Shown piece by piece: positions 63-32,099 of a stretch of DNA of 38,508 nucleotides. The position numbers and the translations under genes are program-made. Each line of letters starts with the position of its first letter. Within the stretch, counting starts at the first letter, position 1. Below the pieces are notes generated by a model that was not told the origin of the DNA, made no database searches, and saw only the letters and a program-made list of their open reading frames with translations. The stretch is from an uncultured Fidelibacterota bacterium (GTDB lineage: Bacteria; Fidelibacterota; Marinisomatia; Marinisomatales; TCS55), in the NCBI GenBank assembly GCA_913009735.1, contig CAJVYU010000019.1, forward strand, positions 1 through 38,508, written 5' to 3'.

Positions 63-120
63 AATGATACGGCGACCACCGAGATCTACACTCTTTCCCT
101 ACACGACGCTCTTCCGATCT
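63..120 (+). other. Illumina P5/TruSeq universal adapter (contamination)
   Basis: All 58 bases match the Illumina universal adapter from memory, starting AATGATACGGCGACC and ending GACGCTCTTCCGATCT. It is library sequence, not genomic DNA. Read on the minus strand it continues the adjacent gene with the artefactual peptide IGRASCRERV, a known sign of adapter contamination in predicted proteins. Confidence 0.98.
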
Positions 121-2923: not shown

Positions 2924-3918
2924 AATGCAATCCCGATAGATAACCGTTGTGGATCTGATAAATGATTAAAATTTGCATAGGCATAGTCAACTCGCAGCTT
3001 GAATCCGCTTATTGGTATAATTAAACCTGCTCCAAACGAAAGGTTTTCTTCTTCCTTATTGATTTTATATCCACCTCGCAAAAAGAATATATTAGCGAAA
3101 TTATATTCTAACCCGGTAGAAATATTCTCTGCATTATCAACCGGATGATTCAGCTGTAAAGCTAAAATGATTGATTGCGTTTTTGTCTGCCATATATCCA
3201 TGGCTGCGCCGACACGGAAAATAGTCGGAGGTGAAAAGGATTCAAATTCAGTAATGACCATTTTTTCTTCACCGGTTTCTGTGTCCAATACTTGTTTCTC
3301 ATACGTTCCATCCGGTTTGGCTTGAGGTCCAAAATGCGAAAGAGAAGCCGAAAAACGTAATGAACGAAATCCGGTCCAATAAAAGGTCCCCATATCCAGC
3401 ATGGCAGTACTCATGATCTGGCCTGCCAAATTTTCCTCTACTTGTTTTAACGTAATTCCAAAACTGAATCGATCTGTCATCCTCGCACCGTACGTCAATG
3501 CAATAAACCGGTCTTGATAGAGGAAATAATTTCCGGTGCCGTGGGGCAGATATTCAGTTGTTTCCTGCATGGGCGCAAAATGCAAAATACCAAAGGAAAT
3601 TCCGGCATAATGGCGTCCTTTTATCCTGCGTGTTAAACTGAAATAATCATAATTAATATCTGCCGGCCATTGAATTCGTGAAGCAGAAAATTCTGTTTGT
3701 TCAAATTGAGCGATGGTTCCCGGATTATAATATACAGACGCAGCATCCTGCTGTAAAGCTGCTACTGCTTCACCCATTCCAACAGCCCTTGCGCTGACGC
3801 CAATCTTCAGAAATGTAAATACGGAAGTTCCTACTCGCTGACCGCCAAGGATGGGGAAAAAATTTTGTCCTTGAACAATTGTAAACGTAATTAAAAATAT
3901 TAATAAAAATTTTCGCAT
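2920..3918 (-). CDS. PorV/PorQ-family outer-membrane beta-barrel protein
   Basis: This is a 332-residue outer-membrane barrel with signal peptide cleaved before Gln18 (FTIVQG/QNFF). The family signature follows: FLKIGVSARAVGMGEAVAAL (about residues 36-55), then a YYNPG motif typical of FadL-like PorV/PorQ/UPF0164 proteins. Repeated barrel strands fill the rest and it ends in the aromatic-rich RLSIGIAF. In T9SS, PorV accepts cargo from SprA; other family members may work with particular receptors. This copy is a paralogue of the one at 20377, and its position between a TonB receptor and an NHL lipoprotein suggests a cargo- or substrate-specific partner. The start shares one base with the upstream stop (TAATG), so it is translationally coupled. 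Confidence 0.88.
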   Translation of the reverse strand: MRKFLLIFLITFTIVQGQNFFPILGGQRVGTSVFTFLKIGVSARAVGMGEAVAALQQDAASVYYNPGTIAQFEQTEFSASRIQWPADINYDYFSLTRRIKGRHYAGISFGILHFAPMQETTEYLPHGTGNYFLYQDRFIALTYGARMTDRFSFGITLKQVEENLAGQIMSTAMLDMGTFYWTGFRSLRFSASLSHFGPQAKPDGTYEKQVLDTETGEEKMVITEFESFSPPTIFRVGAAMDIWQTKTQSIILALQLNHPVDNAENISTGLEYNFANIFFLRGGYKINKEEENLSFGAGLIIPISGFKLRVDYAYANFNHLSDPQRLSIGIAF

Positions 3919-15303: not shown

Positions 15304-17061
15304 TTATTTCAACAAAATTACCTTTTGAGTTTTATTGAATGTACCATTAGTTAATTGCACAAAATACATTCCGCTGGGTTGATTGGACGCATTCCATGTC
15401 ACCACATGCTCACCACTCATTAGTTTACCATTCACCAATGTTTCCACCAGCCGACCTTTGATATCATAAATCTGTAGGAGCGATGCATGCATCGCCTCTA
15501 CGTTAAATTGGATAGTGGTCGTTGGATTGAATGGGTTGGGATACGCCGGGTATAAAACAAATTCGTTGGGTAATCCAATACCATCATCATAATTGGTAGA
15601 TAATGTATCATCCCACGCACCGCCTGGCGTTCCATAATTGTCATCTCCATATAAAGTAGTGGAAGCGGCCCAACTGGTATCGATAATATTATCATAATTA
15701 ATATTTTTCAAATACATGGAAACGCCACTACTATAAGGAAAGTTGGTAGTGTAATAAACTTTATCCACTTTCAGTTCATCTTGATCCAATATGACTATTT
15801 CATCACCGGTATTCGCTAACCATAGATCATTGTAAACATAATCGGGAATGTATCCGCCATTCAAACTGTCAACACTATTCCGGCCAAATACGAAGTATTG
15901 TCCAGGTTCAATCAGCACCATCATGGCGTCATTGGAAATGGGGTGCTCATTATTATTATCCTTAAGTTTCCACCCTTCCATATCTATGGTGACTGTATCA
16001 GCATTATAAATCTCAAACCATTCACCATACGTATCAGAAACTGCCGCCGGGTTTACCATGACTTCTGTTATCACAATATTATAGGGAGACGGATCTCCCC
16101 CGGGAAAAGTAAACGTCGCCATGACCGGCAGATGATCGGATGCGCTATGTAGGGCGTTTGCCATTGCATCGTTCACAAGGCTGTTGTTACCATCATTAAT
16201 AGCTACGTTAAAATGATTGCCGTCATTGCCAACTGCCCAATAGGTGTCTTCCACATAGTTTATTTCATAGGTTTCATTTAGTACGGCCTCGGAAACAAAT
16301 ATCCAATCAAAGCGGTCGTCCAGTCCTCCCGAAGCACCCCCATCCGGGAGTTGTGCTAAACGAGTAGATTGAGTGTGGACATCAGCAAATGAGCTGTTAT
16401 TATGCCAATTCCCGATGCGGTTAACCGGATCGAATAACCTGCCATCGGCATCATTACCTTCGCCGGTCAACATGTCAAAAGCCGGCTCGGATGATGAACT
16501 GTTGCTGTAAATATTAAAATCACCGGCTACCATAAAATGGCTGCCGGTTGGCAGATCATTTAAATGATCCCGCAGTTCTGTAACTTCGAGCAGTCGCTGT
16601 TGGGCGTTTGAACTTCCTTGACTTGCTTTAAGATGAACGCCATATACATTGAATTGAATGCCGGAATCATTATGCTCCAACACCCATTCTACAACGTCCC
16701 TTGTACCCGGTGATTGAGCAGTGTTGATTAAACTAGTACTGATGAATGAAAAAACATCATGACGGTAATATAATGCAATATCCTGACTTGCGCTTTGATT
16801 AGTAAAATCAGCCCCGGTCCAGGCATCAGCTTCAACCACATCCAACACATCAGTTAAAAAATGATTATACCCGGTTTGTCCGACGACCTCTTCGGCAATG
16901 ATAATATCCGGTTCAACATATTCAATAACAGTAATGTAATCATCTTCACGGTCATTCTCGTCTTCATAATTCAGCAAGTTGTATGTCATGAATGTATAAT
17001 TGGATTGAGCCATGCTTTGACTCAAAATCAATAATAAACCAATAATTTTAAAATTTATCAC
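15304..17061 (-). CDS. Secreted endonuclease/exonuclease/phosphatase-family protein with lamin-tail domain and T9SS sorting domain
   Basis: The 585-residue protein has a signal peptide cleaved before Gln19. The EEP domain (about 20-320) has the catalytic set: Asn28 in TYNLLNY, Glu57/58 in IIIAEEV, His143 in YGVHLKA, GDFN at 180-183, DRFDWIF at 249-255 and SDHLPV at 308-313. This fits a metal-dependent phosphodiesterase such as an extracellular DNase. A lamin-tail domain follows (about 328-440; VITEVMVNPAA, GEWFEIYNAD, WKLKDNNNEH). The last 85 residues are a sorting domain (LYPAYPNPFNPTTTIQF, YDIKGRLVETLV). Start is GTG at 17061 with AAAGG about 10 bases upstream. EEP plus lamin-tail plus OB-fold is the make-up of ExeM-type nucleases; here the OB-like units are in the separate 9091 gene. 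Confidence 0.92.
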   Translation of the reverse strand: MINFKIIGLLLILSQSMAQSNYTFMTYNLLNYEDENDREDDYITVIEYVEPDIIIAEEVVGQTGYNHFLTDVLDVVEADAWTGADFTNQSASQDIALYYRHDVFSFISTSLINTAQSPGTRDVVEWVLEHNDSGIQFNVYGVHLKASQGSSNAQQRLLEVTELRDHLNDLPTGSHFMVAGDFNIYSNSSSSEPAFDMLTGEGNDADGRLFDPVNRIGNWHNNSSFADVHTQSTRLAQLPDGGASGGLDDRFDWIFVSEAVLNETYEINYVEDTYWAVGNDGNHFNVAINDGNNSLVNDAMANALHSASDHLPVMATFTFPGGDPSPYNIVITEVMVNPAAVSDTYGEWFEIYNADTVTIDMEGWKLKDNNNEHPISNDAMMVLIEPGQYFVFGRNSVDSLNGGYIPDYVYNDLWLANTGDEIVILDQDELKVDKVYYTTNFPYSSGVSMYLKNINYDNIIDTSWAASTTLYGDDNYGTPGGAWDDTLSTNYDDGIGLPNEFVLYPAYPNPFNPTTTIQFNVEAMHASLLQIYDIKGRLVETLVNGKLMSGEHVVTWNASNQPSGMYFVQLTNGTFNKTQKVILLK

Positions 17062-18199: not shown

Positions 18200-19039
18200 T
18201 TAATTCATCACTTCAGAAACATAAACAAATTCAAAGTGCTCTTTTTCCAATTTCGGAATCTCACGCTGCAATACATTCAATGTATGTTGTTTTGCATGAC
18301 CGATACCCACAGCAAACCCCTGTTTTCTTGCTTTATCTACCAGTTCCTGAAATTGTATTCGGATTAAATCTTCATCGGAATCGTTATCCAGGAATACATG
18401 TCTCCGCCCGGTGGGGACATGAAGAGAACGCATCACCGTTTCAGCTTGAGTATATTTTGTTGTGCGACTGTCCAAAAAATATTTTCCATTTTGTTTTAAT
18501 ACTGTTCCTATAACATTCATCACCCGTTTATTGGCAGTCGCGCTTGATCCCTGATGATTATTCATACCCACAGCTTCCGGCAGATGCTGCAATACTTTTT
18601 CCACACGCTGCTCAATTTCGAGACTGGTCATGGATGATTTCAATCGATACTCATCTTCTCCAATACTGGGGATATTTGTTCCCATGGGCATATGTACCAT
18701 AACCTCAAATCCCTTCATTTTCGCTTTTTTGGACGTTATCCGGCTATATTCATGTCCGGGGATCACAGCAAAGGTCAGTTTGGTATTTAATTTTAGAAAC
18801 CCATCTGACACGGCATCATTTCTATAACCAAAATCATCTATAATAATAGCGATTTTCCCAGCGCTAATAACTTCAACTTCCTTTTCAATTTCGGTAGTGG
18901 GTTTTTCTTCAACGGGCGTTTTCAATTTCTTCTTTTTAAGATAAAGCCCAATCATGACACTCCCCACCACTAAAATGGTTAACATCAGAATAATTATAAT
19001 ATTCTTATTGCGATTGTTTTTATTTGGGGCTGAAGACAT
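18200..19039 (-). CDS. Divergent polysaccharide deacetylase (YibQ/DUF610 family), membrane-anchored
   Basis: The 279-residue protein has one N-terminal membrane helix (about 13-34), a charged linker, and a catalytic-like domain facing the periplasm. Family motifs are present: IAIIIDDFGYRND (metal-site Asp-Asp, 67-69), FAVIPGH, VMVHMPM, VGMNNHQGSS (His in NHQGS), KYFLDSRTT and AVGIGHA. The family is related to NodB deacetylases, but substrate and activity are mostly unknown. The start ATG at 19039 lies directly at the end of the 26-base leader motif (19039-19064), and that motif is in frame with it. The gene ends 2 bases before the asparaginase gene. Confidence 0.92.
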   Translation of the reverse strand: MSSAPNKNNRNKNIIIILMLTILVVGSVMIGLYLKKKKLKTPVEEKPTTEIEKEVEVISAGKIAIIIDDFGYRNDAVSDGFLKLNTKLTFAVIPGHEYSRITSKKAKMKGFEVMVHMPMGTNIPSIGEDEYRLKSSMTSLEIEQRVEKVLQHLPEAVGMNNHQGSSATANKRVMNVIGTVLKQNGKYFLDSRTTKYTQAETVMRSLHVPTGRRHVFLDNDSDEDLIRIQFQELVDKARKQGFAVGIGHAKQHTLNVLQREIPKLEKEHFEFVYVSEVMN

Positions 19040-19317: not shown

Positions 19318-20328
19318 TTAGGGAAAATAAATAGTCAAATCAAGCATCTGGGGTATACCTAATCCCTGTGAACCAATAAGGATTCCATAATTCAAATTAT
19401 AAATGCCAAACCGAAATCCTGCACCTACAGAAATTTCTACTACCTCACGGGAAAGTTTGCTGCTTTGTCTCAACGTAAGATTATGCCAATTGGTTTCATT
19501 GGATGTATGAAGAATCATTCCATTCACTAAAGTGGAAAACTCTCCACCCAACGTGAATTCATTAGAAAACTCACGAGTAGACAGCATGTAACTGGCGCTG
19601 GCAAGAGCACGTATCGGAAGCTTGGGTTTTTCAGATTTTAAGATTGACATTTTTCCCATGTTAAGGATAGCAGCGCCCAGTTTAATTTTCGAATTCAGTT
19701 GTTTGATCAACCCAATATCCACTGAAAATCCGTTGCTGTTTTCTGTATAAAGGTCAATTCGTACCCAGCGAAGAGCTGCACCTATTTTCATCCCCAACAT
19801 GTCCCAACTTCCTACAGCGCCCAAAGCAAAACCATTAGCACCATACGCAGCAATAGGTTCATCGGTGGGTGTTACACCGCGAAGCTCTAAATCATCGATT
19901 TCAACATATTTCAAATTCAGCCCGAAATGTGCATTATCACCAGGGAATAACATCAACAACGATGAGATTTTTGAATCTGCCAGCCAGGAGCCGTGGGATA
20001 CATCCATAAACAGACCGGATTTATTGGCTGACATAGATGCGGGATTAATACTGTTTTTATGTACGGTACTGGAGCCTGTGGACAGTTCCAGCCCATTGGA
20101 AGGAATCGTTAAAAATTGAGTTCCTGTGGCAAACAAAAACCCTGAAAGAATGATGGATGTTATTAAACCGGCAATGGTTAATCGCCCGCCTGCCTGCACT
20201 TCGATTTTGGCAAGTGGTCTTTGTACTTCCCTGCATGCGACATTGGCCAATGTCGAATTCGGGGAAAATAGCGGTAGCGATAGGATAAAACCATGGGTGT
20301 TAAACATTGAATACGCTCTATTAATCAT
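19318..20328 (-). CDS. PorQ-like outer-membrane protein (PorV/PorQ family)
   Basis: The mature part is about 265 residues and has the family pattern: TQFLTIPSNGLELSTGSSTV, then INPASM (the NPA motif), GLFMDVSHGSWL, LNLKYVEIDDLELRG, and barrel strands to the end LDLTIYFP. The PorQ-type barrel acts with T9SS attachment of cargo to the surface; the exact subtype here is uncertain. The start is doubtful. ATG 20328 puts about 46 residues, encoded by a dispersed repeat (20160-20290), ahead of the true hydrophobic signal (GLITSIILSGFLFATG). A GTG inside the repeat (the Val of EVQAGGRLTIAG) would give a normal signal peptide. It follows the PorV gene by 48 bases in the same direction. Confidence 0.82.
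   Translation of the reverse strand: MINRAYSMFNTHGFILSLPLFSPNSTLANVACREVQRPLAKIEVQAGGRLTIAGLITSIILSGFLFATGTQFLTIPSNGLELSTGSSTVHKNSINPASMSANKSGLFMDVSHGSWLADSKISSLLMLFPGDNAHFGLNLKYVEIDDLELRGVTPTDEPIAAYGANGFALGAVGSWDMLGMKIGAALRWVRIDLYTENSNGFSVDIGLIKQLNSKIKLGAAILNMGKMSILKSEKPKLPIRALASASYMLSTREFSNEFTLGGEFSTLVNGMILHTSNETNWHNLTLRQSSKLSREVVEISVGAGFRFGIYNLNYGILIGSQGLGIPQMLDLTIYFP
20160..20255. repeat. Composite leader repeat, copy b: 26-base motif plus CGACATTGGCCAATGTCG palindrome
   Basis: The motif (20160-20185; TTATTAAACCGGCAATGG then TTAATCGC) is followed by CCTGC-rich sequence and an 18-base perfect palindrome at 20238-20255. The same order occurs in copy d (23129-23275). This copy lies inside the N-terminal frame of the PorQ-like gene, encoding STLANV..RE.Q and RLTIAGLI. 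Confidence 0.8.
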
Positions 20329-20376: not shown

Positions 20377-21492
20377 CTAAAAATGAAACGCATACGATAT
20401 AATATGAGCAAAACCGGTGGGCGATTCCAATACCATGGCGTAATCCAAAAATGCGTCATTCTTATTTATGAATGAAAAGTTCATTCCTCCGCCAACACCG
20501 ATCCGTCCGTTGCCGAAACCTCCTCTAAAGAAATAATTCTTTTTATATATATACTCAACACCGACTCTTAATGACTGACCTAAATGGCCATAACTGCCAT
20601 CTGTTTTATCTCCGGCAATGAATCCAAGATCACCCACAATATTAAGTTGTCGTGTTTTATATGTAGCACCTATTCTGAAAATGGATGGGAACACATCTCG
20701 ATACACACGACCTTCTGTTTCAAAAACATTACTTGAATTCCATTGATAATAAGAATTCAAATCCTGAACCATTAAACCAATTTTTAATCGTTTTCCCGGA
20801 TCAATTATAACACCTACATCAAATCCCAACCCTTTACCGGTCAGATCGCTTTCATTCATGGGCAGTTGTGTAAATAAAATTTTAACATTGACTCCAACAC
20901 TAATCCATTTCTGCAATCGCTGGGCAAAGGTGATATAAAATGCATCCTCAGATGTTGATAGTGTTTTCGTATGTTCACCGGCGGTTGTCCTGCCGTCAAT
21001 ACCATTCACTCCGGAACTCACCCAGGCAATGCCCACACCGGCCGTTGGAGGCAGATGCATTGCAAAACTGCTGGAAATGAACCGTCTATCCAAGGATAAT
21101 GAATGATATATAAAAGAGGCTTGACGCGTTTCTAGAAAGGCAGTACCGGCAGGATTGTGATAAGCAGAAAATCCTTTATCCAGTTCAGCGGTAAAACCGC
21201 TACCCATGGCCATGGACCGGGCGGACGTTCCCATACGTAAAAATGATCCGGAGTATCCTGCATAATCGGCTGCTGACAATATCCCAATAGTAAATAGTAA
21301 TATGGGAATGGTTTTCTTTCGGTGTAAATATGTTTTATCACCTCGGATCTTTTTTATTAATCTGGCGATGGATAGTCGTAATAAACTGATGTCAATGCGA
21401 GAAGTGAAGCGACGAAGTGATGACAAAAATGTATATGTATTTTTGTTTATAAGATTCATTCGATTAATATGTCTGACTAATAATCGGCTCAT
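20377..21492 (-). CDS. porV: PorV-type T9SS outer-membrane shuttle protein
   Basis: The core (about 300 residues) is a PorV/FadL-like barrel: GYSGSFLRMGTSARSMAMGS, AYHNPAGTAFL (NPAG motif), ASFIYHSLSLDRRF, then strands ending HIISYAFHF. In T9SS, PorV takes folded cargo from the SprA pore and passes it to the attachment complex. I start at ATG 21492 because it overlaps the upstream stop as ATGA; the longer frame starts with TTG at 21516. This gives some 50 residues ahead of the real signal (KKTIPILLFTIGILSA/ADY), and they include the dispersed repeat at 21354-21420 (RFTSRIDIS, RLSIARLI). No ATG, GTG or TTG is visible in the short stretch just before the signal, so the true start is unsettled. 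Unlike most exported proteins here it lacks Gln at the cleavage site. Confidence 0.85.
   Translation of the reverse strand: MSRLLVRHINRMNLINKNTYTFLSSLRRFTSRIDISLLRLSIARLIKKIRGDKTYLHRKKTIPILLFTIGILSAADYAGYSGSFLRMGTSARSMAMGSGFTAELDKGFSAYHNPAGTAFLETRQASFIYHSLSLDRRFISSSFAMHLPPTAGVGIAWVSSGVNGIDGRTTAGEHTKTLSTSEDAFYITFAQRLQKWISVGVNVKILFTQLPMNESDLTGKGLGFDVGVIIDPGKRLKIGLMVQDLNSYYQWNSSNVFETEGRVYRDVFPSIFRIGATYKTRQLNIVGDLGFIAGDKTDGSYGHLGQSLRVGVEYIYKKNYFFRGGFGNGRIGVGGGMNFSFINKNDAFLDYAMVLESPTGFAHIISYAFHF
21354..21420. repeat. Leader repeat, copy c: 26-base motif joined to GCGAAGCGACGAAG-class repeat
   Basis: The motif (21354-21379; TTATTAATCTGG then CGATGGATAGTCGT) is 23/26 identical to copy a. It is followed by TGTCAATGCGAGAAG and TGAAGCGACGAAGTGATGAC, which I recall as a dispersed repeat class common in many bacterial genomes (CGAAGCGACGAAGCAATC type). 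It lies in frame in the PorV leader. Confidence 0.75.
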
Positions 21493-23372
21493 TTTACAAC
21501 TATCAACTTTACCCAATGATTACTGGGCCCTGCGTTTATATTTTGTGAATACTTAAGTTTGATAAAATAGACACCGTTAGCGACTAATCGCCCGCTGTTA
21601 TCTTTGCCATTCCATTTAATGGCGCCTGTGTTAGGATTCTGCCTATCCAACGATGTACTATAAACATTTTCCATGGCAAAATTGTATACATCCAATTCCA
21701 CTTTATAAGATGCTACATCCCCCAAATGAAAACGGACATAACCATCCCCGTCCAGAACATTGTGCGAATTGGGAGAAAAGGGATTGGGATATGCATAAAT
21801 CTTCTCCGGATCATAATCAGCCCGATAGATTTGCCAATTACTTCCCTGCAAATCTGAAGATCTACCGATGCCATCTCCTGTTCCGATCCAAAGGACAGGA
21901 CCATGATAGTATACCCTGCTATCTAACGCTCCGGAAAACACTTCGCTGGATAATGTTTCATCCCCTTGAAGAGGTGTTATATTTTTTGCCGGCTTAAACA
22001 AAGCCCAGCTCTGGCCATCTTCTGATTTCCACAATCCTCTTTCGCTTGCAGCAAAGACCAAAGAATCCTGGGCAAACACATTGTAAACCCGTTCGCCAAT
22101 CAACGTGGTGTTCCAGGTCACCCCATCATTCAGTGTATAACTTACTCCTCGCTGCTCCATGGGATCATCTGCATTCATGGTCGCTGCCCAGATGATTCGC
22201 TGCCCATTCCAATTTTGGCGGGCAATACTTACAACAAAATTACCGGTCAAATTTTCAAAAGGGTATGCATAATGCTCCCAGTCAATGCATCCTTGGTCAC
22301 CCATAACGCCACGGTTGATACCATTGGCTGTTCCCACCCATACCGTATCGCTATAAGCTAAAACTGAGAATGCTTTATGGTTATGATTACCGCCGTCAAG
22401 GGGATCTCTGGGATTTAAATAGAAGTTCTTTAAAATATTTTTACCGTCAACTATTTCATAAGAAGAATCAGCGCATGTGACTAACGTAAATTGATCGTCT
22501 TGAGGGATTGGAACTTTTTCCCAACTTCCATCGGCTATTTTATAGCGCCTTAATCCTCCTGCCCAGCTAGTGATCCAGACATAGCCACCGCCGATGGATG
22601 CATCATACGTCACATTGAATTGTGGCACGGTCACCGGCAACCCCTTCACAAAACCAATTCCTCCAAATGGGAACCGTTCAGCGCCTTCCTCGTCTACAGG
22701 CTGATCGTAAAATATCCAGACTGGAACTTCAGATGTAGAATTTGGCGTATACACAACACCCTGTCCGGTTGAAAAATTATTAATACTTTTGGCAAATGCG
22801 GCGAACATGGTATCCCCCCTGACGGCAATGGCTGACACACCACCTTCAGGGAAAAAACCACCCGTACTTGAACCATTCGTTAATCCTGAACTTGTAAAAA
22901 ATGTTTCTACTGTCAATGAGTCTTTTATTCTTGAAAGTCCTCGTCCGGTTCCCAGCCAGACCCAACTGCTATCCCCTTGCAACACTATTTCCGAAATAAC
23001 ATTGCTTAACAAACCCGATTGAGATGTATCGGCGGCAGAGACAGACTTTTGATGTTTCAAATCCGATGGTATTTGAAATTTTGTTGCTACTTGAGCAAAC
23101 AATCCTGTCGATAAACAAATTATTGCGATTATTAAAACGGCACCGGTTAGTCGTATTTTGAAGCCCCCAACCTTCGCTGCAACTACGGCAAGCGGGCTTG
23201 CCTGCGCTTCGACTTCGGCAGGCGAGCTTTGTGTTTCCCTGTATTCGACATTGGCCAATGTCGAATTCGGGGAAAGTGAAAGGTTATTATATTGAATCCT
23301 TTGACCATCTCCCCTGTAACAGGGGAGAATTAAAGAGGGGTTATTTAATAGTGGAATAATATTAAATATCAT
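21489..23372 (-). CDS. Secreted beta-propeller protein with T9SS sorting domain
   Basis: The mature protein (about 530 residues, starting at Gln of GLFA/QVATKF) has repeated propeller-blade motifs of the two-component-regulator/YVTN type: WVWLGTGRGLSRIKD, GYVWITSWAGGLRRYKIADG, DTVWVGTANGINRGV, LVFAASERGLWKSEDG and LWIGTGDGIGRSSD. The C-terminal ~95 residues are a sorting domain (IYAYPNPFSPNSHNV, LDVYNFAMENV, NGVYFIKLKYS). It is expected on the cell surface through SprA and PorV, both encoded nearby. Reading from ATG 23372 puts about 70 residues before the signal peptide, encoded by the composite repeat at 23129-23327; no ATG, GTG or TTG lies in the last 25 codons before the signal. Function is unknown. 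Confidence 0.82.
   Translation of the reverse strand: MIFNIIPLLNNPSLILPCYRGDGQRIQYNNLSLSPNSTLANVEYRETQSSPAEVEAQASPLAVVAAKVGGFKIRLTGAVLIIAIICLSTGLFAQVATKFQIPSDLKHQKSVSAADTSQSGLLSNVISEIVLQGDSSWVWLGTGRGLSRIKDSLTVETFFTSSGLTNGSSTGGFFPEGGVSAIAVRGDTMFAAFAKSINNFSTGQGVVYTPNSTSEVPVWIFYDQPVDEEGAERFPFGGIGFVKGLPVTVPQFNVTYDASIGGGYVWITSWAGGLRRYKIADGSWEKVPIPQDDQFTLVTCADSSYEIVDGKNILKNFYLNPRDPLDGGNHNHKAFSVLAYSDTVWVGTANGINRGVMGDQGCIDWEHYAYPFENLTGNFVVSIARQNWNGQRIIWAATMNADDPMEQRGVSYTLNDGVTWNTTLIGERVYNVFAQDSLVFAASERGLWKSEDGQSWALFKPAKNITPLQGDETLSSEVFSGALDSRVYYHGPVLWIGTGDGIGRSSDLQGSNWQIYRADYDPEKIYAYPNPFSPNSHNVLDGDGYVRFHLGDVASYKVELDVYNFAMENVYSTSLDRQNPNTGAIKWNGKDNSGRLVANGVYFIKLKYSQNINAGPSNHWVKLIVVK
23129..23275. repeat. 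Composite leader repeat, copy d: 26-base motif plus long palindrome
   Basis: The motif (23129-23154; TTATTAAAACGGCACCGG then TTAGTCGT) is followed by GGCAAGCGGGCTTGCC-type repeat and a near-perfect 42-base inverted repeat at 23234-23275. The centre of that repeat, CGACATTGGCCAATGTCG, is perfect over 24 bases (23243-23266). It lies in frame in the propeller gene and encodes STLANV..RE and RLTGAVLI. Confidence 0.8.
23309..23327. repeat. Palindrome CTCCCCTGTAACAGGGGAG
   Basis: This is the third copy in the window of the CCCCTGT-ACAGGGG palindrome; the other two flank the DUF559 gene at 8.4-8.9 kb. It lies about 34 bases from copy d of the leader repeat and within the 5' part of the propeller gene's open frame. 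Confidence 0.8.
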
Positions 23373-23403: not shown

Positions 23404-24234
23404 TCATTGTATTACTACCAGAGTGGTTATGTACGGTTCAGATAAAATACCGGAGTAATCCCTGGCGTAAAAATAGGATGTATACTTGCCTAAGGGATTA
23501 TTAGAATCAATAATAATGTATCTGGAAAATTTGCCATCGTTGGCTTTTTCATCCCAAACATATGTGGAAAAATTCTGATTTCCGTCATCGTACAGGGAGA
23601 TAGGACTTCCGCTGGAATATGTACTGTCCGGTTTTTGAAACATAAGGTAACAGATCTGAACGTCTTCGTATCCATTAGGATCATCCACAGTCACAACGAT
23701 TGTACCCACAGAAACACTGTCTGCTCCGGGACGAAGCATGGTATCAGGCATGCTCACTGTTAAAATGGTCGGACCTTGGTTGCCGGCTTCATAAATAGCC
23801 ATACTCCCTTTTATCTCTCCTCCATATTGAGCCAGAAATTTTACATATACTTTTCCTATATCCGTTGGCTCTAATACATAAGAAACAGAATTGGTATCAT
23901 TATTCACTTTTAGTGAATACACATCATCATTGGCGATAATATCGCCGGATATTCCGGCATCATTCAAGATCAGTGTGTCAGCAGTTTGAGTCGTATCAAA
24001 ACCAAAATATAACGCGTTGACAGCCTGCAAACTTTTTCCCAAATAAGACGGTTCAGTCTGGACACTGAAATATAAATGGTTCAATCCCTGGTTATAATTA
24101 AACTCCATATCCTGCAAAAGGATTATTTCTTCATCTGTGGATTTTCCATCGGGGCAGCCCCAAATGAAAAAAAGTATACCCAATAATAACCAAACATGTT
24201 TACGCATAGGAATAAAATATAACGGTTTCATCAT
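23404..24234 (-). CDS. Lipoprotein of unknown function, beta-rich
   Basis: The start is taken at ATG 24234, which overlaps the upstream stop as ATGA; the longer frame to 24297 would lie inside the cyclase gene. ATG 24207 (MRKHVW) is a second choice that gives a cleaner signal: VWLLLGILFFIWGC, with Cys as lipidation site. The mature ~250 residues contain two Ig/FN3-like beta domains (YVLEPTDIGKVYVKFLAQY, TIVVTVDDPNGYEDVQICYL) and acidic repeats (DDGNQNF, KANDGKF), suggesting calcium loops. I cannot place it in a named family. It sits between the glutaminyl cyclase and the propeller cargo protein, so an accessory role in T9SS or surface display is an inference from context. Confidence 0.75.
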   Translation of the reverse strand: MMKPLYFIPMRKHVWLLLGILFFIWGCPDGKSTDEEIILLQDMEFNYNQGLNHLYFSVQTEPSYLGKSLQAVNALYFGFDTTQTADTLILNDAGISGDIIANDDVYSLKVNNDTNSVSYVLEPTDIGKVYVKFLAQYGGEIKGSMAIYEAGNQGPTILTVSMPDTMLRPGADSVSVGTIVVTVDDPNGYEDVQICYLMFQKPDSTYSSGSPISLYDDGNQNFSTYVWDEKANDGKFSRYIIIDSNNPLGKYTSYFYARDYSGILSEPYITTLVVIQ

Positions 24235-25145
24235 TCGATTCCATAGATATGATTGACTAACAACGTACCGACCTGATCCAGGCTGGATGAAGAACATTTA
24301 TCCGGGAGGTCTTGATGGGTGTGCCAGTAGTTCGAGTACCGGTTTGGATAATCAAAATCAATGATATCCACTGCCGGAATACCGGCATATTTCCAAAGAG
24401 GTACATGATCATCGTAGATTGGATAGCCGAGAGATTGATCGAAAGCAGGTAAATTCAACCTGTTGGCTAGTTTCCATAAGCTGCGGACTAGTCTTGGTGC
24501 CTGCTGGTAAGAAAATCTTTCGATTGGAAGATGTAAATATGTATCCCCTACCATATCCAAAATAATAGCGTAATCCGGTTTTGGGATTGGCAGGTTTTTT
24601 GAAAAAAACAACGAACCCTGTCCATAAGATTCACTTTCTCCTGACATACCCAAATCTTCACCATCAAATAATACGAGAGTAATACCAACTGTTAAATCAT
24701 GATTATGGAAGACGTCTGCTAACGCTAACAAAACTGCCACGCCGCTGGCGCCATCGTTGGCACCAATGATAGGTTTATTCCGGTCTTCGGGATTTAGTTC
24801 TTTATCTGCCCATGGACGCGTATCCCAGTGGGCTCCTAATAAAATTTGCTTTTCTGCATTTGGATTAAACCGAGCAATAATATTTGACAAGTTATATTCA
24901 CCATCTCGATATGGATCAACATACTTAAAGGGCTGGGTCCAAACGGTATCCGCTTTCGAATTCAATTCATCGATTAAATAATTCATACAGGCATAATACC
25001 CATCCGAACCGGGATTCCTGGGACCAAAAGAACATTGTTTCTCTAAATATGTGTATGATAGATCGCCTGAAAATTCAGGTATTGCTTTCCCACAACCGGT
25101 ACTAACCAGCAAATATAATAAAACCCAATTTATTTTCATTTTCAT
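24231..25145 (-). CDS. M28-family glutaminyl-peptide cyclotransferase, lipoprotein
   Basis: The enzyme class converts N-terminal glutamine of exported proteins to pyroglutamate. The protein is about 304 residues. The start is taken as ATG 25145; the longer frame begins with TTG at 25157. A lipoprotein signal ends VSTGC (Cys18), so it is probably anchored in the periplasm. Zinc-enzyme motifs are all seen: LLGAHWDTRPWAD (His, Asp), IGANDGASGVAVLL (bridging Asp), LVLFDGEDLG (Glu pair), ILDMVGD and WHTHQDLPDKC (distal His). This pattern, with SFGPRNPGSDGY near the N-terminus, fits glutaminyl cyclase better than aminopeptidase. It starts 44 bases after the sprA stop. Ten exported proteins in this window have Gln at the predicted mature N-terminus, which gives it obvious substrates. 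Confidence 0.9.
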   Translation of the reverse strand: MKMKINWVLLYLLVSTGCGKAIPEFSGDLSYTYLEKQCSFGPRNPGSDGYYACMNYLIDELNSKADTVWTQPFKYVDPYRDGEYNLSNIIARFNPNAEKQILLGAHWDTRPWADKELNPEDRNKPIIGANDGASGVAVLLALADVFHNHDLTVGITLVLFDGEDLGMSGESESYGQGSLFFSKNLPIPKPDYAIILDMVGDTYLHLPIERFSYQQAPRLVRSLWKLANRLNLPAFDQSLGYPIYDDHVPLWKYAGIPAVDIIDFDYPNRYSNYWHTHQDLPDKCSSSSLDQVGTLLVNHIYGIE

Positions 25146-25188
25146 AATTTTTACCAAAAACCAGCTACACGTCCACTACTCACCAACA

Positions 25189-28100
25189 TTAACCACTGAT
25201 AGTAATGTTAACATCAAATCCAAAATCACGGTCCACTTTCTTACCGGTTGTTATTGAATCTGTTTCTCTGTATTCGTAAATGATTCCGCCGCTGATTTGA
25301 GAACTGAAGGAGTATGAAATGCGTAAAGAAGTTTTCCATCCGGAATTGAACGCCAACTGTCCAAATTCAGCACCATTATTTCTACTGCCCAATGTCTCAC
25401 TTTCATTCATATCAAAATTCAATGTAAAGTTTACAGTATTTTGAATATGCCAATCATCCATCATTGGCAATGGAATAGTAAATCCTCCACGATGACTGTA
25501 ATTACTGCTGGCTGTCCAGCTTTTTTCATTCCGAACATTCAAACCGTTCGATTCATCCTGGACAGATTTTGACAGGGTATGCCTTATATTAAACGAAATA
25601 CCTTTTTTCAGATTCATGTTTAAACCAATGAGTGGTGAAAAACTGATATTCGTTCTTGAAGTACGCTGATAGTCTTCATATTCACTAATAAAAGAACCTA
25701 AGGTAAACAGCGGCATCGTTGGAATATCCAAATTTTCAAATTGCCAAGATCGGGAATCTCTCCCACTTAGGGCATGTTCCAGGCTGGCCGTTCGTGCAAT
25801 TCTTTTAATAAAGGGCCATTTTTCAACCCCTGTCCATCTCAAACTCCAGCCAAAGAATGGAAGGCCGTTTTCCAATTTATCCCCCCATGATAAATAGTCG
25901 CGCTCCATCGTTCGTTGTTCAATATTTGAACCGGTGATAGTCGTAGAGACCTTTTGAGCATAATTAATAGACATTGAAATATTACGCGTCAGATTCAATC
26001 CGGTTCGAACGGAAAAATCCTTCTTATGATCCCAGGTACCCAAGTTTGAACCGACATTTTCATCTTGATTTAAACCATGATCAGGAAGCCAGCCAAACTT
26101 ATAACCCGTGGGGACTTCTCCCTGTACTCCATAACCGGTACGATTCAGATTCTCCGTATATGTCAAGCTAATTGGATTTACTTTTTTAACGACCTTATGC
26201 AATGCTGTAAGAAACGGAATCTCTTTTTGTTCTGTTTTTTTTTCTTTTTCAACTTCATTATTTTTTGATCGTCCTCTCCTCCGACCCCTTGTTTGACGTG
26301 TATTCTTTGAGGGTGGTTTATAAACCATTTCAAAAATCTGTGACGGAAGAATACTCACGCTGGAAGAAAATCGTAACTGGGTTCCAATGGTTGCACCATC
26401 AATTGTACTGGTCCTGGGTTTATTCCATCTATATGCCGCACTATGGCTGATGTTTGGTTTCAGCCAGGTAAAGATTTGTGGATTAAATGACGTATTCAAA
26501 TTTTCTGTTATATTAACGACGATACCCGGATCCATATTTTGAACGGCTGTCCATACGTATCCCCGATAATCCTGCATATCACTCGACATAGACCGCTTGT
26601 ACTTGGTTTTCAGTTTATTGGTCATATTATAATCCAAACCAAAGGATCTGTTTAAAGTAAAAGTATATTTATCACCAATACGTCCGCCCAAACGTTTTGT
26701 TTCTTGTTTTAAAGTTTCATTGAAATTCATACCGGCGTTGATGGCAGAGGGCGTATAATACAGCTGTATTTCTCCCGTTTTTGTTCCAAGCCATGGAACT
26801 TTTTTCAACCATTTAAATGGTGTTATATAATTATCCCGACCAAATGAATAATTATAACTTACCTTCCCCGAATATTTTTCATTAATGATTTCTGAACTCA
26901 ATTCATTCGATGCCCTGGATCGCGATGCGGAAAAGCTCGGTTTTATTTTATCTAACGTTGCTTTAATAATTTTATTATCTGATTTACTGGATTTTGCCAA
27001 CGATGTACTAAAAGAAATATCCTGTTGTTTTATCAAGATTGAATCAGGAATGGCGTCCTGATCCACCAAAATATCGGAATCAGGAAAATATTTTGGCTTC
27101 CTTACAGAACTGGAAATAGATGCATTAACCGGAATACTGATGCCCCATGATTTTGGTAAAAATTTGTGAATTTGGGTATTCATGCTTAAACGGAAATTTT
27201 CCGTATTGATATTGTTCCCCAGCCGTTTCTGCAGAACATGGAAATCGGCATCTTTTCTGCTATAAGAAAATGTGGAACTTACCAAATCTGCCAAATTGAA
27301 TTTTGATAATAGCCGCATGGCAACACCACGGTCTTTTTTAACTCCGCTTAAACGCATTTCATCCAACCAAATTTCACCGGTAATAGGTTCATCTGCGTTA
27401 TTAGTAATACCTACAGTAAAATATTGAATACTTGATAAGGATGGTTTCCCTTTGATTTTTATGATTTTTCCTGTTGGTATGCCGTCTTCATCTGTAAATG
27501 TATATATTCGTTCATTGTCTACAATTTCATAAATATCGGAATCCTTATATTTTTTTACAGTGGATGAGTCCTGAAGCTTGAGTTTCGTCAGCCAGTTCAA
27601 ATCTATCTCGATTGAATTACGTCCTCTTGATTCATCCCATCCGGAATAGACCGGTTGAACGATTTCATAATAATTTTTTCCCTGTCCAAACCGGAGAAAG
27701 AAATCCACGTTTGTTTCGTCTTTTTTAATCCATGGATTTGGCGTCTCGCCATACACATACATTTTTAATTTGTCGTATGTAAGGTAATTGGCGCCGGAAA
27801 TTCTCATTAAACTTTTGATGGCAGCTCCACTGTGATGCGCCGGTAAATCCCGGAATTTCAATACAAGTGATTGCTCTTTTGAACGTATATCATTGATTCT
27901 GTCATATTCCCCTCGTACACCTTTTGGAGGTGTATAATTCGTATTGTCTTCATTATTCACTACAGTGACGGCAAAAATACTGTCAGCATTTTCTTTACTG
28001 AATACGTTAGACGTATCCGCAGCAATGCCTAATTCCTGCCAGTCATTCCCCACCAATTCAATTTTTGCAATGCCAATATTTACTTCTCCGGTATCCGACA

Positions 28101-31100
28101 CCATCAAGCGTACATGACGAATTTCTGTCCATTTACTACTCATAGAAGAATCTAACCGTGCAAAATCATTCAACGGGATACGAAACAATTTCCATCCGGT
28201 AAAAGATCCATTTGATTTTTTGGTTTCACCGGCTAAATATGTCGTATCAGACAGGAAGAACGATTTTGTGAAATACTCATTCTTTTTAATGAGTTCATTT
28301 GAACGGTCCAAACTTTCCGTATCAGGATATCTCCCTCCATCACGGGCATTATTTTCAGTTCCATTAATATAAGAATAATTTGAACTGCCCTCCGTATATG
28401 ACCAGTTATCTCCATTGGGGTCTTCCAGGTTTCTGTCCGTTCCTGTGTATACAAGATCAGCCCATTGAGGGTTACCCACTACATCCACATAAAATGTATC
28501 AATACAGCCGCCCCAGCCGTCTTCATATTCATCCGTACATCCATCCAATCCAATGTCTTCATTGTCCTGTAAAATATCATCACCACTCATATTAGCTTTT
28601 TTTTCATCTTCTGTATTCAGTAAGCCGTCACCGTTTCTGTCTTCACTGACACGTCCGAGGTCAATGGTCATTTTTCCTTTTTCACCATAGAGCCATATTT
28701 CAAAAAATTTTGTCTGTGTTTGATCATAATCCCCTGAATACAGCGGTGAAGTAATAGTTGCCCAAACGGAATCCTGAGGTAATCCTTCCTGTAATTCTCG
28801 TGGACGAAATTTTAATCTTAAGATATCCGTCGTTTCATTTTGAGCTCGAATGGATGTGGATTGATTTGGCCAGATTTCTTTTGTCCTGATTTGTATATAG
28901 GGGTTATACCAAATCAATTTGGCTCGATTACGCTGGGAATAAAATTGGTCAAATTCAGGAATAACCGGCGCAGATCCTTCCTTCCAATACCGTCTCTGGA
29001 TTGGAATGGATGTGGTTCTCTTGGCGCCTTCAAAATCATCAATAAACGCAATGCCATTCGGATCACCCGTGGCAGGATTATTAAGGGGATTCGGATTCGG
29101 AAGCACTTGAGCTATTTCTCCTTCAATTGAAAATGTGGATATTTTTTCCGTTTCAATAATGGGTAAACGATCCAGAGCCCGGGTCAATCCATCAAAGTCA
29201 AATTGATAACGGCCGTTCAAATCCCAAATGAAATTACGCATGGGTTCATAACCGACTTCCACTTTTTCATTAATGATCGATTGATTATAGTAAAGTGCCG
29301 TAGCTCCGAGGAATGAATTTTTCCCAAGATTCATTTGCGCTCGGGTTCCCACAATTGTTTTCTTATCAAAAGATACTAATTCGTGTTTTTCATATAGAAT
29401 CTTGAGTTCACCATTTGGGTCCAAATCACTACCTAGAACAAGCGTCCCTGTAAAATAATCTACTTGATAATCTTTTCCGCGTTTCAATTCAACCCCGTCT
29501 AAAAACACCTGGTCGCTTCCCTCAACAATCATGAACCCTAAATTGATGCTGGCTGATTTATTTTTATACATAACTTCAATTTCCCAATGTTTATCCTGGG
29601 TGATTTCACTCATAATAGTAGATGTATACATTTTCCCTTCTCCAAGGACTTCTTTTAATTCCGGTTTTTTATTTCCGCCTTCAATGGAATCAGGGGCAAA
29701 TGGAAGAAACATGGGAAAAAACAATTCACCATTACTAATACTCACAATATATCCATTGTCCATATCAATGATATTGTCACTGTTTGGCGCATTCGTCGCA
29801 TCCACAATATCCAAACCAAAATGAGTGATATAAGCGACTGCGTTTGGATCCGATTCTTTATCCGGGGACATGATGGTATTCCAGATTTTTATCTCAAATC
29901 CATCTTTATTAATATTTTGTGCTCTCAATGAATACACATTTTTAAACATGAGATCCCATAAATCATGATCTGGAGTTAAGTTCTCCGGTTTAATCATTTG
30001 CAATGCTAAGGTAGAATCGCTTTCGGAAACACCATGCCCCACCGCCAAAACCGTGTCGAGAACAACTGCCCTATTATTCTTGTCTACCTTTACAATTAAA
30101 TAATGAGTCGCCAATAAGTTATCTGTTGAAGTATTTTTCATGCGTATGTAACCAAGATCACTATCCAACGTATAATCAGTATTATTTTCCAACCGTTTAA
30201 AGTTGACATTTTCACGATCGTTGTCGGACGGATTATTGATATCCACAAAAGCAGTCCCGGGGACTGTATTAGGGCCCGGTGAATTATCCATGAGGTATAA
30301 TTCAAAATTGAGGATTGCATAGTTCCCTAAATAATGTTGTCCTATATCGTTTAAAGGATAAAACGGTGGAATAGTATCTATGGTCTTGGATTGTCCATTA
30401 TATTCCGTAGATAGATTTCCGATACCATTTCGGTACATTTCATTAATAAAGAAATATTTATTTTTTATATAATCATAATCCTGCAAGCGAAAACTTTCAG
30501 CTTTATCAGTTCCTTCATATGTTTTGACCTCTTTTTTTGTTTTTTCAATGGAGGCAATGGTGGTGATATCTATAGGCCCAAATTTGGACACTGCCTTCAT
30601 GCCAAACAGACCTTTATTTTGGCCGGAAAATGTCACAAACTGCGTTGACGGTAATGAAAGTGAAATATTTCCTGCATCAATTTTCTGAATAATATCATCT
30701 TCCGCACCCTCATAGGAAATACGAATATTATTTTCCCAATCAAAATCCCGTTCAGAATCATTGTCCATTAATACAGTGATACGGTCGCCAATTTTCCCTT
30801 CAACATTTAAATTCTGTTTTTGATCAAATTCGAGATGGGTATTTTGCGATTCCTGCAAACTGGAGCGGATCAGTTCCTGATCCTGAAATACCATTTTCCC
30901 GGCAATATTAATGTTACCGCGGACTCGTAATGATGCTGTCCCCAGTGCACCCATATCCACTAAATCTATTGTAATACCCTTACTGCCGCGTCGTGATTTT
31001 GTCTGACTTTCTTCGACTCCCAAAGTCATTTTTTCAGTAAAAACAATTTGACGCTTTATTTTAATCATATGTTGAAAATACCATTCCATAGGCGCTGTAA

Positions 31101-31407
31101 ACGGAATCCTGAAAATCTCATCCTCAATAAATTCTGTCAGAGTGATATATTTCCAATCTCGGTCAATATAAACTTCGATATCATGTTGGATAAAATCGGT
31201 TTTTATCCAGCCCAGTGGTTTCGTAAGCGTATCAGATAGAAGGCTTAAGGGTTTGGGTATATTTGGAAATGCCGGTGAAACAAAATCAGAGATTGGATAA
31301 TAGCTTTCAGGCAACTTAAGGACGAGCGTATCCTGTTGACCATTCTGAGCAAAATTTGCCGAAATGGTCATAAATAGCACAATGATGACCGCGTACCCTT
31401 TTCTCAA
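25189..31407 (-). CDS. sprA: SprA/Sov, T9SS outer-membrane translocon
   Basis: This 2072-residue giant barrel is the protein-conducting pore of type IX secretion. The signal peptide is cleaved before Gln21 (SANFA/QNGQQ). SprA-family features include DWKYITLTEFIEDEIFRIPF (about 80-100), ITIDLVDMGALGTASLRVRG, LNVEGKIGDRITVLMDNDSE, the paired SLPSTQFVTFSGQNKGLFGM, AFIDDFEGAKRTTSIPIQRR and IWLDEMRLSGV; the C-terminal third is barrel strands. It is shorter than SprA or Sov of Bacteroidetes (about 2400-2500 residues). The start codon is TTG, with GAGGAG seven bases upstream, the strongest ribosome site in the window. rdgB lies 92 bases upstream in the same direction, glutaminyl cyclase directly downstream, and PorV three genes further on. 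Confidence 0.96.
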   Translation of the reverse strand: MRKGYAVIIVLFMTISANFAQNGQQDTLVLKLPESYYPISDFVSPAFPNIPKPLSLLSDTLTKPLGWIKTDFIQHDIEVYIDRDWKYITLTEFIEDEIFRIPFTAPMEWYFQHMIKIKRQIVFTEKMTLGVEESQTKSRRGSKGITIDLVDMGALGTASLRVRGNINIAGKMVFQDQELIRSSLQESQNTHLEFDQKQNLNVEGKIGDRITVLMDNDSERDFDWENNIRISYEGAEDDIIQKIDAGNISLSLPSTQFVTFSGQNKGLFGMKAVSKFGPIDITTIASIEKTKKEVKTYEGTDKAESFRLQDYDYIKNKYFFINEMYRNGIGNLSTEYNGQSKTIDTIPPFYPLNDIGQHYLGNYAILNFELYLMDNSPGPNTVPGTAFVDINNPSDNDRENVNFKRLENNTDYTLDSDLGYIRMKNTSTDNLLATHYLIVKVDKNNRAVVLDTVLAVGHGVSESDSTLALQMIKPENLTPDHDLWDLMFKNVYSLRAQNINKDGFEIKIWNTIMSPDKESDPNAVAYITHFGLDIVDATNAPNSDNIIDMDNGYIVSISNGELFFPMFLPFAPDSIEGGNKKPELKEVLGEGKMYTSTIMSEITQDKHWEIEVMYKNKSASINLGFMIVEGSDQVFLDGVELKRGKDYQVDYFTGTLVLGSDLDPNGELKILYEKHELVSFDKKTIVGTRAQMNLGKNSFLGATALYYNQSIINEKVEVGYEPMRNFIWDLNGRYQFDFDGLTRALDRLPIIETEKISTFSIEGEIAQVLPNPNPLNNPATGDPNGIAFIDDFEGAKRTTSIPIQRRYWKEGSAPVIPEFDQFYSQRNRAKLIWYNPYIQIRTKEIWPNQSTSIRAQNETTDILRLKFRPRELQEGLPQDSVWATITSPLYSGDYDQTQTKFFEIWLYGEKGKMTIDLGRVSEDRNGDGLLNTEDEKKANMSGDDILQDNEDIGLDGCTDEYEDGWGGCIDTFYVDVVGNPQWADLVYTGTDRNLEDPNGDNWSYTEGSSNYSYINGTENNARDGGRYPDTESLDRSNELIKKNEYFTKSFFLSDTTYLAGETKKSNGSFTGWKLFRIPLNDFARLDSSMSSKWTEIRHVRLMVSDTGEVNIGIAKIELVGNDWQELGIAADTSNVFSKENADSIFAVTVVNNEDNTNYTPPKGVRGEYDRINDIRSKEQSLVLKFRDLPAHHSGAAIKSLMRISGANYLTYDKLKMYVYGETPNPWIKKDETNVDFFLRFGQGKNYYEIVQPVYSGWDESRGRNSIEIDLNWLTKLKLQDSSTVKKYKDSDIYEIVDNERIYTFTDEDGIPTGKIIKIKGKPSLSSIQYFTVGITNNADEPITGEIWLDEMRLSGVKKDRGVAMRLLSKFNLADLVSSTFSYSRKDADFHVLQKRLGNNINTENFRLSMNTQIHKFLPKSWGISIPVNASISSSVRKPKYFPDSDILVDQDAIPDSILIKQQDISFSTSLAKSSKSDNKIIKATLDKIKPSFSASRSRASNELSSEIINEKYSGKVSYNYSFGRDNYITPFKWLKKVPWLGTKTGEIQLYYTPSAINAGMNFNETLKQETKRLGGRIGDKYTFTLNRSFGLDYNMTNKLKTKYKRSMSSDMQDYRGYVWTAVQNMDPGIVVNITENLNTSFNPQIFTWLKPNISHSAAYRWNKPRTSTIDGATIGTQLRFSSSVSILPSQIFEMVYKPPSKNTRQTRGRRRGRSKNNEVEKEKKTEQKEIPFLTALHKVVKKVNPISLTYTENLNRTGYGVQGEVPTGYKFGWLPDHGLNQDENVGSNLGTWDHKKDFSVRTGLNLTRNISMSINYAQKVSTTITGSNIEQRTMERDYLSWGDKLENGLPFFGWSLRWTGVEKWPFIKRIARTASLEHALSGRDSRSWQFENLDIPTMPLFTLGSFISEYEDYQRTSRTNISFSPLIGLNMNLKKGISFNIRHTLSKSVQDESNGLNVRNEKSWTASSNYSHRGGFTIPLPMMDDWHIQNTVNFTLNFDMNESETLGSRNNGAEFGQLAFNSGWKTSLRISYSFSSQISGGIIYEYRETDSITTGKKVDRDFGFDVNITISG

Positions 31408-31499: not shown

Positions 31500-32099
31500 T
31501 TATAATTTACTGCTCCAATAAGCAGACAGTTGTTTATGAAGATTTTGTAATGCGTGTCCACGATGACTGATTTTATTCTTTACCTCTGTAGAAAGTTCCG
31601 CGAATGTACAATTCATTTCCAATATAAAAAACAATGGATCATATCCAAATCCGGATTTGCCTTTGGGCTCAAACGTTATCATTCCTTCTATTTTTCCCTC
31701 TGATGTCAATTCTGTTTCCCCATCTACAAACGCAGCAACCGTTCGGAATCTGGCAGTACGTTTATTTTTACTAATATCTGACATTTCCGTGAGGAGTTTA
31801 TTTACATTATCCTCATAGGTGGCATCTTCCCCTGCATAACGGGCAGAATATACACCCGGACCACCGTTAAGAGAATCGACTTCCAAGCCGGTGTCATCAC
31901 CGATTGCCGGAAGTCCGGTTAACCGGTTTACAGTTCTCGCTTTTAATAAAGCGTTTTCTTTCAGCGTTTCACCTGTTTCTTTAATATCTCCCACTTCAGG
32001 ATAATCATCCAGCGTAATAATCTCAACGGATAAATCCCGGAGAACTGATTTCATTTCTTCCACTTTATGTGGATTATGTGATGCGAGTATTATTTTCAT
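31500..32099 (-). CDS. rdgB: RdgB/HAM1 non-canonical purine NTP pyrophosphatase
   Basis: This 199-residue cytoplasmic enzyme hydrolyses ITP, dITP and XTP to monophosphates, keeping damaged purines out of nucleic acids. The family motifs are complete: ASHNPHKVEEM (residues 6-16), TGETLKENALLKA, GDDTGLEVDSLNGGPGVYSA with RYAGEDATYEDN, PKGKSGFGYDPLFF, and the C-terminal SHRGHAL. The length is typical. It is the first gene of the long minus-strand run containing sprA and is separated from sprA by 92 bases with a hairpin, so cotranscription is possible but not certain. No strong ribosome site is seen before the ATG. Confidence 0.96.
   Translation of the reverse strand: MKIILASHNPHKVEEMKSVLRDLSVEIITLDDYPEVGDIKETGETLKENALLKARTVNRLTGLPAIGDDTGLEVDSLNGGPGVYSARYAGEDATYEDNVNKLLTEMSDISKNKRTARFRTVAAFVDGETELTSEGKIEGMITFEPKGKSGFGYDPLFFILEMNCTFAELSTEVKNKISHRGHALQNLHKQLSAYWSSKL

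What the first reader, a model, noticed from the sequence alone, without database searches (positions are those of the whole stretch)
24231..31407. SprA translocon followed directly by glutaminyl cyclase, with ten exported proteins starting at Gln
Predicted signal-peptide cuts in ten genes (starting at 517, 1611, 3918, 6734, 12945, 15114, 17061, 23372, 31407 and 36526) leave Gln at +1, mostly A/Q or G/Q. This is the 'Q-rule' described for Bacteroidetes, where Gln is cyclised to pyroglutamate. Finding the cyclase gene 44 bases after sprA, in a genome that may lie outside Bacteroidetes, suggests that translocation and N-terminal capping are encoded as one module.
Basis: partly seen in the sequence, partly recalled or inferred. 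Interest (0 to 1): 0.8.

Follow-up and report, generated by a model that had tools for sequence, protein, structure and literature searches.

The report
SprA–glutaminyl cyclase operon across FCB phyla
In several little-studied bacterial phyla related to Bacteroidetes, the gene for the type IX secretion pore (SprA) is followed directly by the gene for the enzyme that seals the first amino acid (Gln) of exported proteins, and exported proteins there do tend to begin with Gln, so this capping system is older and wider than Bacteroidetes, where it was described.

Summary
The locus is real. SprA (25189-31407) is followed 43 bases later by a type II glutaminyl cyclase (QC, 24231-25157) with an intact active site. 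The genome belongs to Neomarinimicrobiota (NCBI Fidelibacterota). In 149 genomes of that phylum (27 families) sprA->QC adjacency holds in essentially all 114 genomes with both genes on one contig. It is also the rule in Gemmatimonadota (44 of 46) and in the phylum of a Calditrichota genome (36 of 37), but absent in Bacteroidota (0 of 13), where the Q-rule was described. The QC tree follows the phyla, so an ancestral FCB gene pair broken in Bacteroidota is the simplest reading. Gln at +1 is enriched genome-wide: 39 of 105 predicted signal-peptidase-I substrates (37%; mature Gln 3.6%) by a predictor blind to +1; the same pipeline gives 0 of 13 in E. coli, 31 of 75 in Bacteroidota, 22 of 37 in Gemmatimonadota. 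The pair is a physical module, but the functions are separable: Gln +1 is not confined to T9SS cargo (7/14 versus 35/99, p=0.38), and each gene occurs without the other in Gemmatimonadota. Best reading: one envelope-export operon, with QC capping Sec/SPI products generally. Novelty: the cross-phylum linkage and wider Q-rule.

The parts
25189..31407 (-). sprA: T9SS outer-membrane translocon SprA/Sov, 2072 aa, TTG start
   Evidence: TIGR04189 756 bits; PF14349; PDB 6h3i
24231..25157 (-). Type II (animal-type, bacteroidal variant) glutaminyl cyclase; lipobox-like leader (VSTGC); likely ATG start at 25145
   Evidence: PF04389; PDB QCs E 1e-50; catalytic and zinc residues invariant in A1
31500..32099 (-). 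Ham1/RdgB-like NTP pyrophosphatase, upstream operon neighbour (20 of 21 loci)
   Evidence: PF01725; synteny
23404..24297 (-). Lipoprotein of unknown function (true start probably internal), conserved operon member in 17 of 21 loci
   Evidence: weak choice_anch_X domain
21489..23372 (-). PorZ-like protein with FlgD-Ig type C-terminus; N-terminal start uncertain; A|Q junction near 23093
   Evidence: PF13860; weak PorZ/PorU C-terminal match; synteny
20377..21516 (-). PorV/PorQ-family outer membrane protein
   Evidence: NF033709 92 bits, cut-off 90
19318..20328 (-). second PorV/PorQ-family protein (below cut-off)
   Evidence: NF033709 53 bits; synteny
18200..19039 (-). conserved downstream gene, 279 aa, labelled polysaccharide-deacetylase-like from sequence reading only (no NCBIfam match)
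   Evidence: synteny; no family hit
2920..3918 (-). PorV-family protein, predicted Gln+1 (G|Q)
3918..6734 (-). TonB-dependent receptor, predicted Gln+1 (A|Q)
9091..12945 (-). exported protein with T9SS type A C-terminal domain, predicted Gln+1
   Evidence: TIGR04183
12964..15114 (-). exported protein, weak PorZ-like C-terminus, predicted Gln+1
15304..17061 (-). exported protein with T9SS type A C-terminal domain, predicted Gln+1
   Evidence: TIGR04183
34346..36526 (-). TonB-dependent receptor, predicted Gln+1 (S|Q)
31345..31347 (-). Gln codon at +1 of SprA if the cut is after ISANFA (alternative cut ISA|NFAQ scores slightly higher)

Best explanation
This is a type IX secretion operon that also encodes the cell's glutaminyl cyclase: rdgB - sprA - QC - (prmA) - lipoprotein - PorZ-like - PorV - PorV. 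SprA is the outer-membrane pore. QC is a periplasmic, mostly lipid-anchored zinc enzyme that converts the Gln exposed by signal peptidase I into pyroglutamate on Sec-exported proteins in general: pore components, receptors and T9SS cargo. The capping protects these proteins from aminopeptidases. Adjacency of sprA and QC is probably the ancestral FCB state; it was kept in Neomarinimicrobiota, Gemmatimonadota and Calditrichota and broken in Bacteroidota. Shown by computation: the protein families, intact catalytic residues, Gln+1 enrichment and cross-phylum adjacency. Inferred: QC activity, the cap itself, its protective role, and the reason the genes stay together (co-expression of the export and finishing machinery).
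For: Family identities. Invariant HsQC-equivalent residues D135, E167, D168 (the bacteroidal Asp at zinc ligand 202), D201, W278 and H279 across 21 QCs (with PMC7948796, and PMC5837995). Adjacency sprA->QC, same strand: 112 of 114 genomes with both on one contig in the window's phylum, the other two being partial SprA hits, 27 families sampled; 44 of 46 in Gemmatimonadota; 36 of 37 in the phylum of Calditrichota genome G149; 0 of 13 in Bacteroidota. Gaps are often only 0-15 bases or an overlap. Across phyla the downstream genes differ while sprA-QC stays; in two lineages (f2, f18) the PorZ/PorV genes are gone but sprA-QC remains. The QC tree groups by phylum. Gln+1: 39 of 105 in the own genome; Gemmatimonadota with linked genes 22 of 37; Bacteroidota 31 of 75; E. 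coli 0 of 13. The own genome holds 87 T9SS CTD domains and one QC.
Against: No biochemical proof of QC activity or of pyroglutamate in these phyla; M28 QCs resemble aminopeptidases. The Gln+1 predictor is home-made, and its absolute percentages are underestimates. Gemmatimonadota without a detected type II QC still show Gln+1 (18 of 40), so another cyclase or spontaneous cyclisation may serve, and the tie between this QC and the rule is not shown. Gln+1 looks weaker in the other Neomarinimicrobiota classes (10 of 38) although the linkage is intact there.
Confidence: 0.8

Rival explanations
1. The adjacency is a frozen ancestral gene order with no functional meaning; sprA and QC simply share an old operon together with housekeeping genes such as rdgB and prmA.
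For: rdgB and prmA, which have no known export role, are in the same operon in many genomes. Functions are separable: QC-only and sprA-only Gemmatimonadota; unlinked in Bacteroidota. Gln+1 is not cargo-specific.
Against: In three phyla the other neighbours change while sprA-QC stays, and in f2 and f18 the rest of the T9SS genes are gone from the locus but sprA-QC is kept. Both products act on the same flow of exported proteins.
Confidence: 0.35
2. QC is a true T9SS accessory: it caps cargo or SprA at or near the translocon, and translocation efficiency depends on pyroglutamate.
For: Persistent sprA-QC adjacency and tight spacing; SprA itself often has Gln or Glu at +1.
Against: Gln+1 is not significantly commoner in cargo (7/14) than in non-cargo (35/99). 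In P. gingivalis Gln at +1 is not a generic sorting signal, apart from RgpA (PMC5837995). T9SS and QC are unlinked in Bacteroidota.
Confidence: 0.12
3. The M28 protein is an aminopeptidase of secreted peptides rather than a cyclase.
For: M28 also contains aminopeptidases; the HxD and other metal ligands are shared (general knowledge of M28).
Against: Closest PDB hits are QCs (E 1e-50) and the nearest named aminopeptidase scores 2.7e-5. It has Trp before the zinc His, the bacteroidal Asp as third ligand and the conserved RP..D loop, and lies in a genome with Gln+1 enrichment.
Confidence: 0.07

Closest known systems
Bacteroidetes Q-rule with PgQC (PG2157) of Porphyromonas gingivalis
   Same: Type II QC with the same active-site set and mostly a lipid anchor; Gln exposed after signal peptidase I in a large share of exported proteins of all envelope classes
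   Different: Here outside Bacteroidota (Neomarinimicrobiota, Gemmatimonadota), and the QC gene is directly downstream of sprA; PgQC is the first gene of a PG_2157-2158-hemG operon (PMC10653852)
T9SS translocon SprA/Sov with PorV (Flavobacterium johnsoniae, P. gingivalis)
   Same: SprA family over its curated cut-off, PorV-family partners, PorZ-like protein and 87 T9SS CTD domains in the genome
   Different: SprA about 2070 aa instead of about 2400; gene order rdgB-sprA-QC-lipoprotein-PorZ-like-PorV-PorV; other core genes (PorK/L/M/N, PorU) not searched here
Human QPCT and other animal type II QCs
   Same: Catalytic and zinc ligands correspond (D159, E201, D248, H330, W329)
   Different: E202 is Asp, as in bacteroidal QCs; bacterial envelope enzyme

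Membership tests
Type II glutaminyl cyclase (bacteroidal subtype) | Sequence closest to characterised QCs rather than aminopeptidases | tested here: met
   PDB QCs E 1e-50; aminopeptidase YwaD 2.7e-5
Type II glutaminyl cyclase (bacteroidal subtype) | Single-zinc ligands and catalytic residues, Asp at the HsE202 position, Trp before the zinc His | tested here: met
   D135, E167, D168, D201, W278, H279 invariant in A1 against PMC7948796 and PMC5837995
Type II glutaminyl cyclase (bacteroidal subtype) | Cyclase activity on N-terminal Gln | not testable with these tools
   needs enzyme assay
Q-rule | Large excess of Gln at +1 of SPI substrates (>48% by SignalP in Bacteroidetes) | tested here: met
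   39 of 105 (37%) with a blind model that gives 41% for Bacteroidota loci and 0 of 13 for E. coli; the absolute threshold is not comparable because SignalP was not available
Q-rule | Gln converted to pyroglutamate in vivo | not testable with these tools
   needs N-terminal proteomics
T9SS | SprA translocon over the curated cut-off | tested here: met
   TIGR04189 756 bits
T9SS | C-terminal sorting domains on cargo | tested here: met
   87 TIGR04183 matches in the genome
T9SS | PorV partner of SprA | tested here: met
   PorV-family genes in the operon and at 2920-3918; family level, not the PorV equivalog model
T9SS | PorK/L/M/N motor and ring, PorU sortase | not tested

The most novel reading that the evidence does not exclude
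sprA-QC is an ancestral T9SS module of the FCB superphylum in which N-terminal capping is functionally coupled to the pore (QC works with, or near, SprA on its clients). Bacteroidota, where the Q-rule has been studied by experiment, is the exception that lost this coupling.
Probability: 0.2. Interest if true: 0.78.

Novelty: new variant of a known kind. Interest (0 to 1): 0.62.

Why it matters
The Q-rule was published as a Bacteroidetes-specific feature with unclear exceptions elsewhere, and its co-occurrence with T9SS was noted but judged non-mechanistic (PMC5837995). The data here place the Q-rule at Bacteroidota-like strength in Neomarinimicrobiota and Gemmatimonadota, and show that the cyclase and the T9SS pore are neighbours in three phyla but not in Bacteroidota. 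This gives a genomic reason for the co-occurrence, suggests that both traits date to the FCB stem, names the likely cyclase in phyla with almost no cultured members, and makes the T9SS-capping question testable in culturable Gemmatimonadota.

Tried and rejected
Early home-made signal-peptide scorers placed cuts poorly, and an EM refinement drifted because Gln itself is so common near the junction. They were discarded for a fixed model that is blind to +1 and got 17 of 17 known E. coli cuts right. I considered and rejected that Gln+1 enrichment is a cargo signal. I expected loss of Gln+1 in Gemmatimonadota that lack type II QC; it was not seen (18 of 40 against 22 of 37, Fisher p=0.26), so dependence on this QC is not demonstrated. 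Literature searches for a reported sprA-QC linkage found none in the held library; subscription papers were not covered.

Full report
WHAT IS THERE. The window is contig C19 of a 3.42 Mb draft genome (G000, 258 contigs). On the minus strand lie a SprA translocon (25189-31407; TIGR04189 756 bits, cut-off 200; PDB SprA 6h3i) and, 43 bases downstream of its stop to the likely ATG, an M28 protein (24231-25157). The best PDB matches of the latter are bacterial glutaminyl cyclases at E 1e-50, far above any aminopeptidase. In an alignment of 21 QCs (19 from this phylum, two from the PDB) the residues that define type II QCs are invariant: D135 (HsQC D159), E167 (E201), D168 (E202 replaced by Asp, as in bacteroidal QCs), D201 (D248), W278 and H279 (W329, H330) (compared with PMC7948796 and PMC5837995). 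It is the only QC homologue of the genome at E 1e-20. Most relatives have a lipobox; several families have instead an SPI-type leader followed by Gln, so QC itself looks like a Q-rule substrate there.

WHO IT IS. NCBI calls the phylum Fidelibacterota, FCB group.

THE Q-RULE. I built a signal-peptide model that does not look at +1; it placed all 17 known E. coli cuts correctly. In 834 kb of the genome 39 of 105 SPI-like proteins have Gln at +1 (37%), next Gly 11%; mature Gln is 3.6%. A rerun with a second gene finder gave 38 of 102, p=3e-28. The same pipeline gives 0 of 13 for 150 kb of E. coli and 31 of 75 (41%) for 74 Bacteroidota loci, where the published SignalP mean is 71% (PMC5837995). 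The window's genome is thus at Bacteroidota level. Gemmatimonadota reach 22 of 37 (59%) in four genomes with linked genes. In the other Neomarinimicrobiota classes the sample is small and weaker (10 of 38). The 2018 paper called the rule Bacteroidetes-specific while listing scattered high values elsewhere. Within the genome, proteins with a T9SS C-terminal domain are not significantly richer in Gln+1 than others (7/14 against 35/99, p=0.38); 87 such domains were found.

THE LINKAGE. In 149 genomes of the phylum (27 families) SprA was found in 148 and QC in 141. Where both lie on one contig, QC is directly downstream of sprA on the same strand in 112 of 114. The other two are measured from partial SprA matches: G057 was read in full and is adjacent (L116), while in G127 QC lies 5.5 kb beyond a partial match in a 3274-aa SprA frame, which the unmatched C-terminal part of that frame could fill. 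No genome shows them clearly apart on one contig. Reading 20 further loci shows the operon rdgB-sprA-QC-(prmA)-lipoprotein-PorZ-like-PorV-PorV; in two lineages, including a genome-reduced one, only rdgB-sprA-QC remains. Gaps are often 0-15 bases or overlaps.

A scan of GTDB contigs with a QC DNA pattern gave 118 named loci. SprA lies directly upstream of QC in Calditrichota L140 and in Gemmatimonadota L142, L148, L150, L191, L211, L227, L231 and L237. Phylum-scale surveys gave: Gemmatimonadota 44 of 46 same-contig genomes (61 with both; 25 sprA only, 24 QC only); the phylum of the Calditrichota genome 36 of 37; Bacteroidota 0 of 13 same-contig (31 with both). Single genomes of Poribacteria, Fibrobacterota and Kryptonia are unlinked or not resolved. 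Downstream of QC the three linked phyla differ (lipoprotein/PorZ; prmA; pilus-type ATPase by sequence reading), so the shared element is the sprA-QC pair. The QC tree (73 sequences) recovers Neomarinimicrobiota and Gemmatimonadota as groups, the latter next to Bacteroidota, so transfer of the pair between phyla is not needed to explain it.

HOW IT PROBABLY WORKS. Shown: families, active site, Gln+1 excess, adjacency. Inferred: QC faces the periplasm, cyclises Gln exposed by signal peptidase I, and so protects exported proteins, as reported for P. gingivalis (PMC10653852). The pair is presumably co-transcribed because both products serve the same export flow. Direct coupling of capping to T9SS translocation is possible but is not favoured: the two are separable in Gemmatimonadota and Bacteroidota, and Gln+1 is not cargo-specific. 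An awkward fact is that Gemmatimonadota with sprA but no detected type II QC keep Gln+1 (18 of 40). A plant-type QC would explain this, as Bacteroidetes use two QC lineages, but it could not be searched.

LIMITS. MAG assemblies; same-contig counts ignore broken contigs; QC absence depends on an E-value cut of 1e-40; the signal-peptide model is simple; no proteomics.

Noticed in passing
window 86-517: The ORF at the contig edge ends in ...IGRASCRERV, which looks like Illumina adapter read-through, so the last few dozen bases at the window's low end are probably artefact.
   Followed up: no
window 20188-20267, 23196-23275; and 19038, 20159, 21353, 23128: An 80-nt palindromic interspersed repeat (85% between copies) and a 27-nt element sit just upstream of genes of the sprA-QC-PorZ-PorV operon and read into their annotated N-termini; further copies occur elsewhere in the genome (L017, L019, L092, L102).
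   Followed up: partly
L128:2924-3822 (IMG/VR contig IMGVR_UViG_3300012979_000064): A viral contig of 20% GC encodes a QC-like protein (29-31% identity); all in-frame stops inside the frame are TAG while TAA flanks it, which suggests a TAG-recoded phage carrying a glutaminyl cyclase.
   Followed up: partly
Neomarinimicrobiota family f2 (genomes of 0.7-1.0 Mb), L119: Genome-reduced members keep rdgB-sprA-QC although the PorZ and PorV genes are gone from the locus; what SprA does there is unclear.
   Followed up: no
L157, L236, L151, L207, L241: Type II QC homologues occur in a Porticoccaceae MAG, an actinomycete (Pseudosporangium), Sumerlaeota, Armatimonadota and Mcinerneyibacterium, without SprA where it was searched; some may be MAG contamination.
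   Followed up: partly
G127, G136, G142 (family f15), L118: SprA frames of 2769-3274 aa, much longer than the usual 2000-2200 aa.
   Followed up: no
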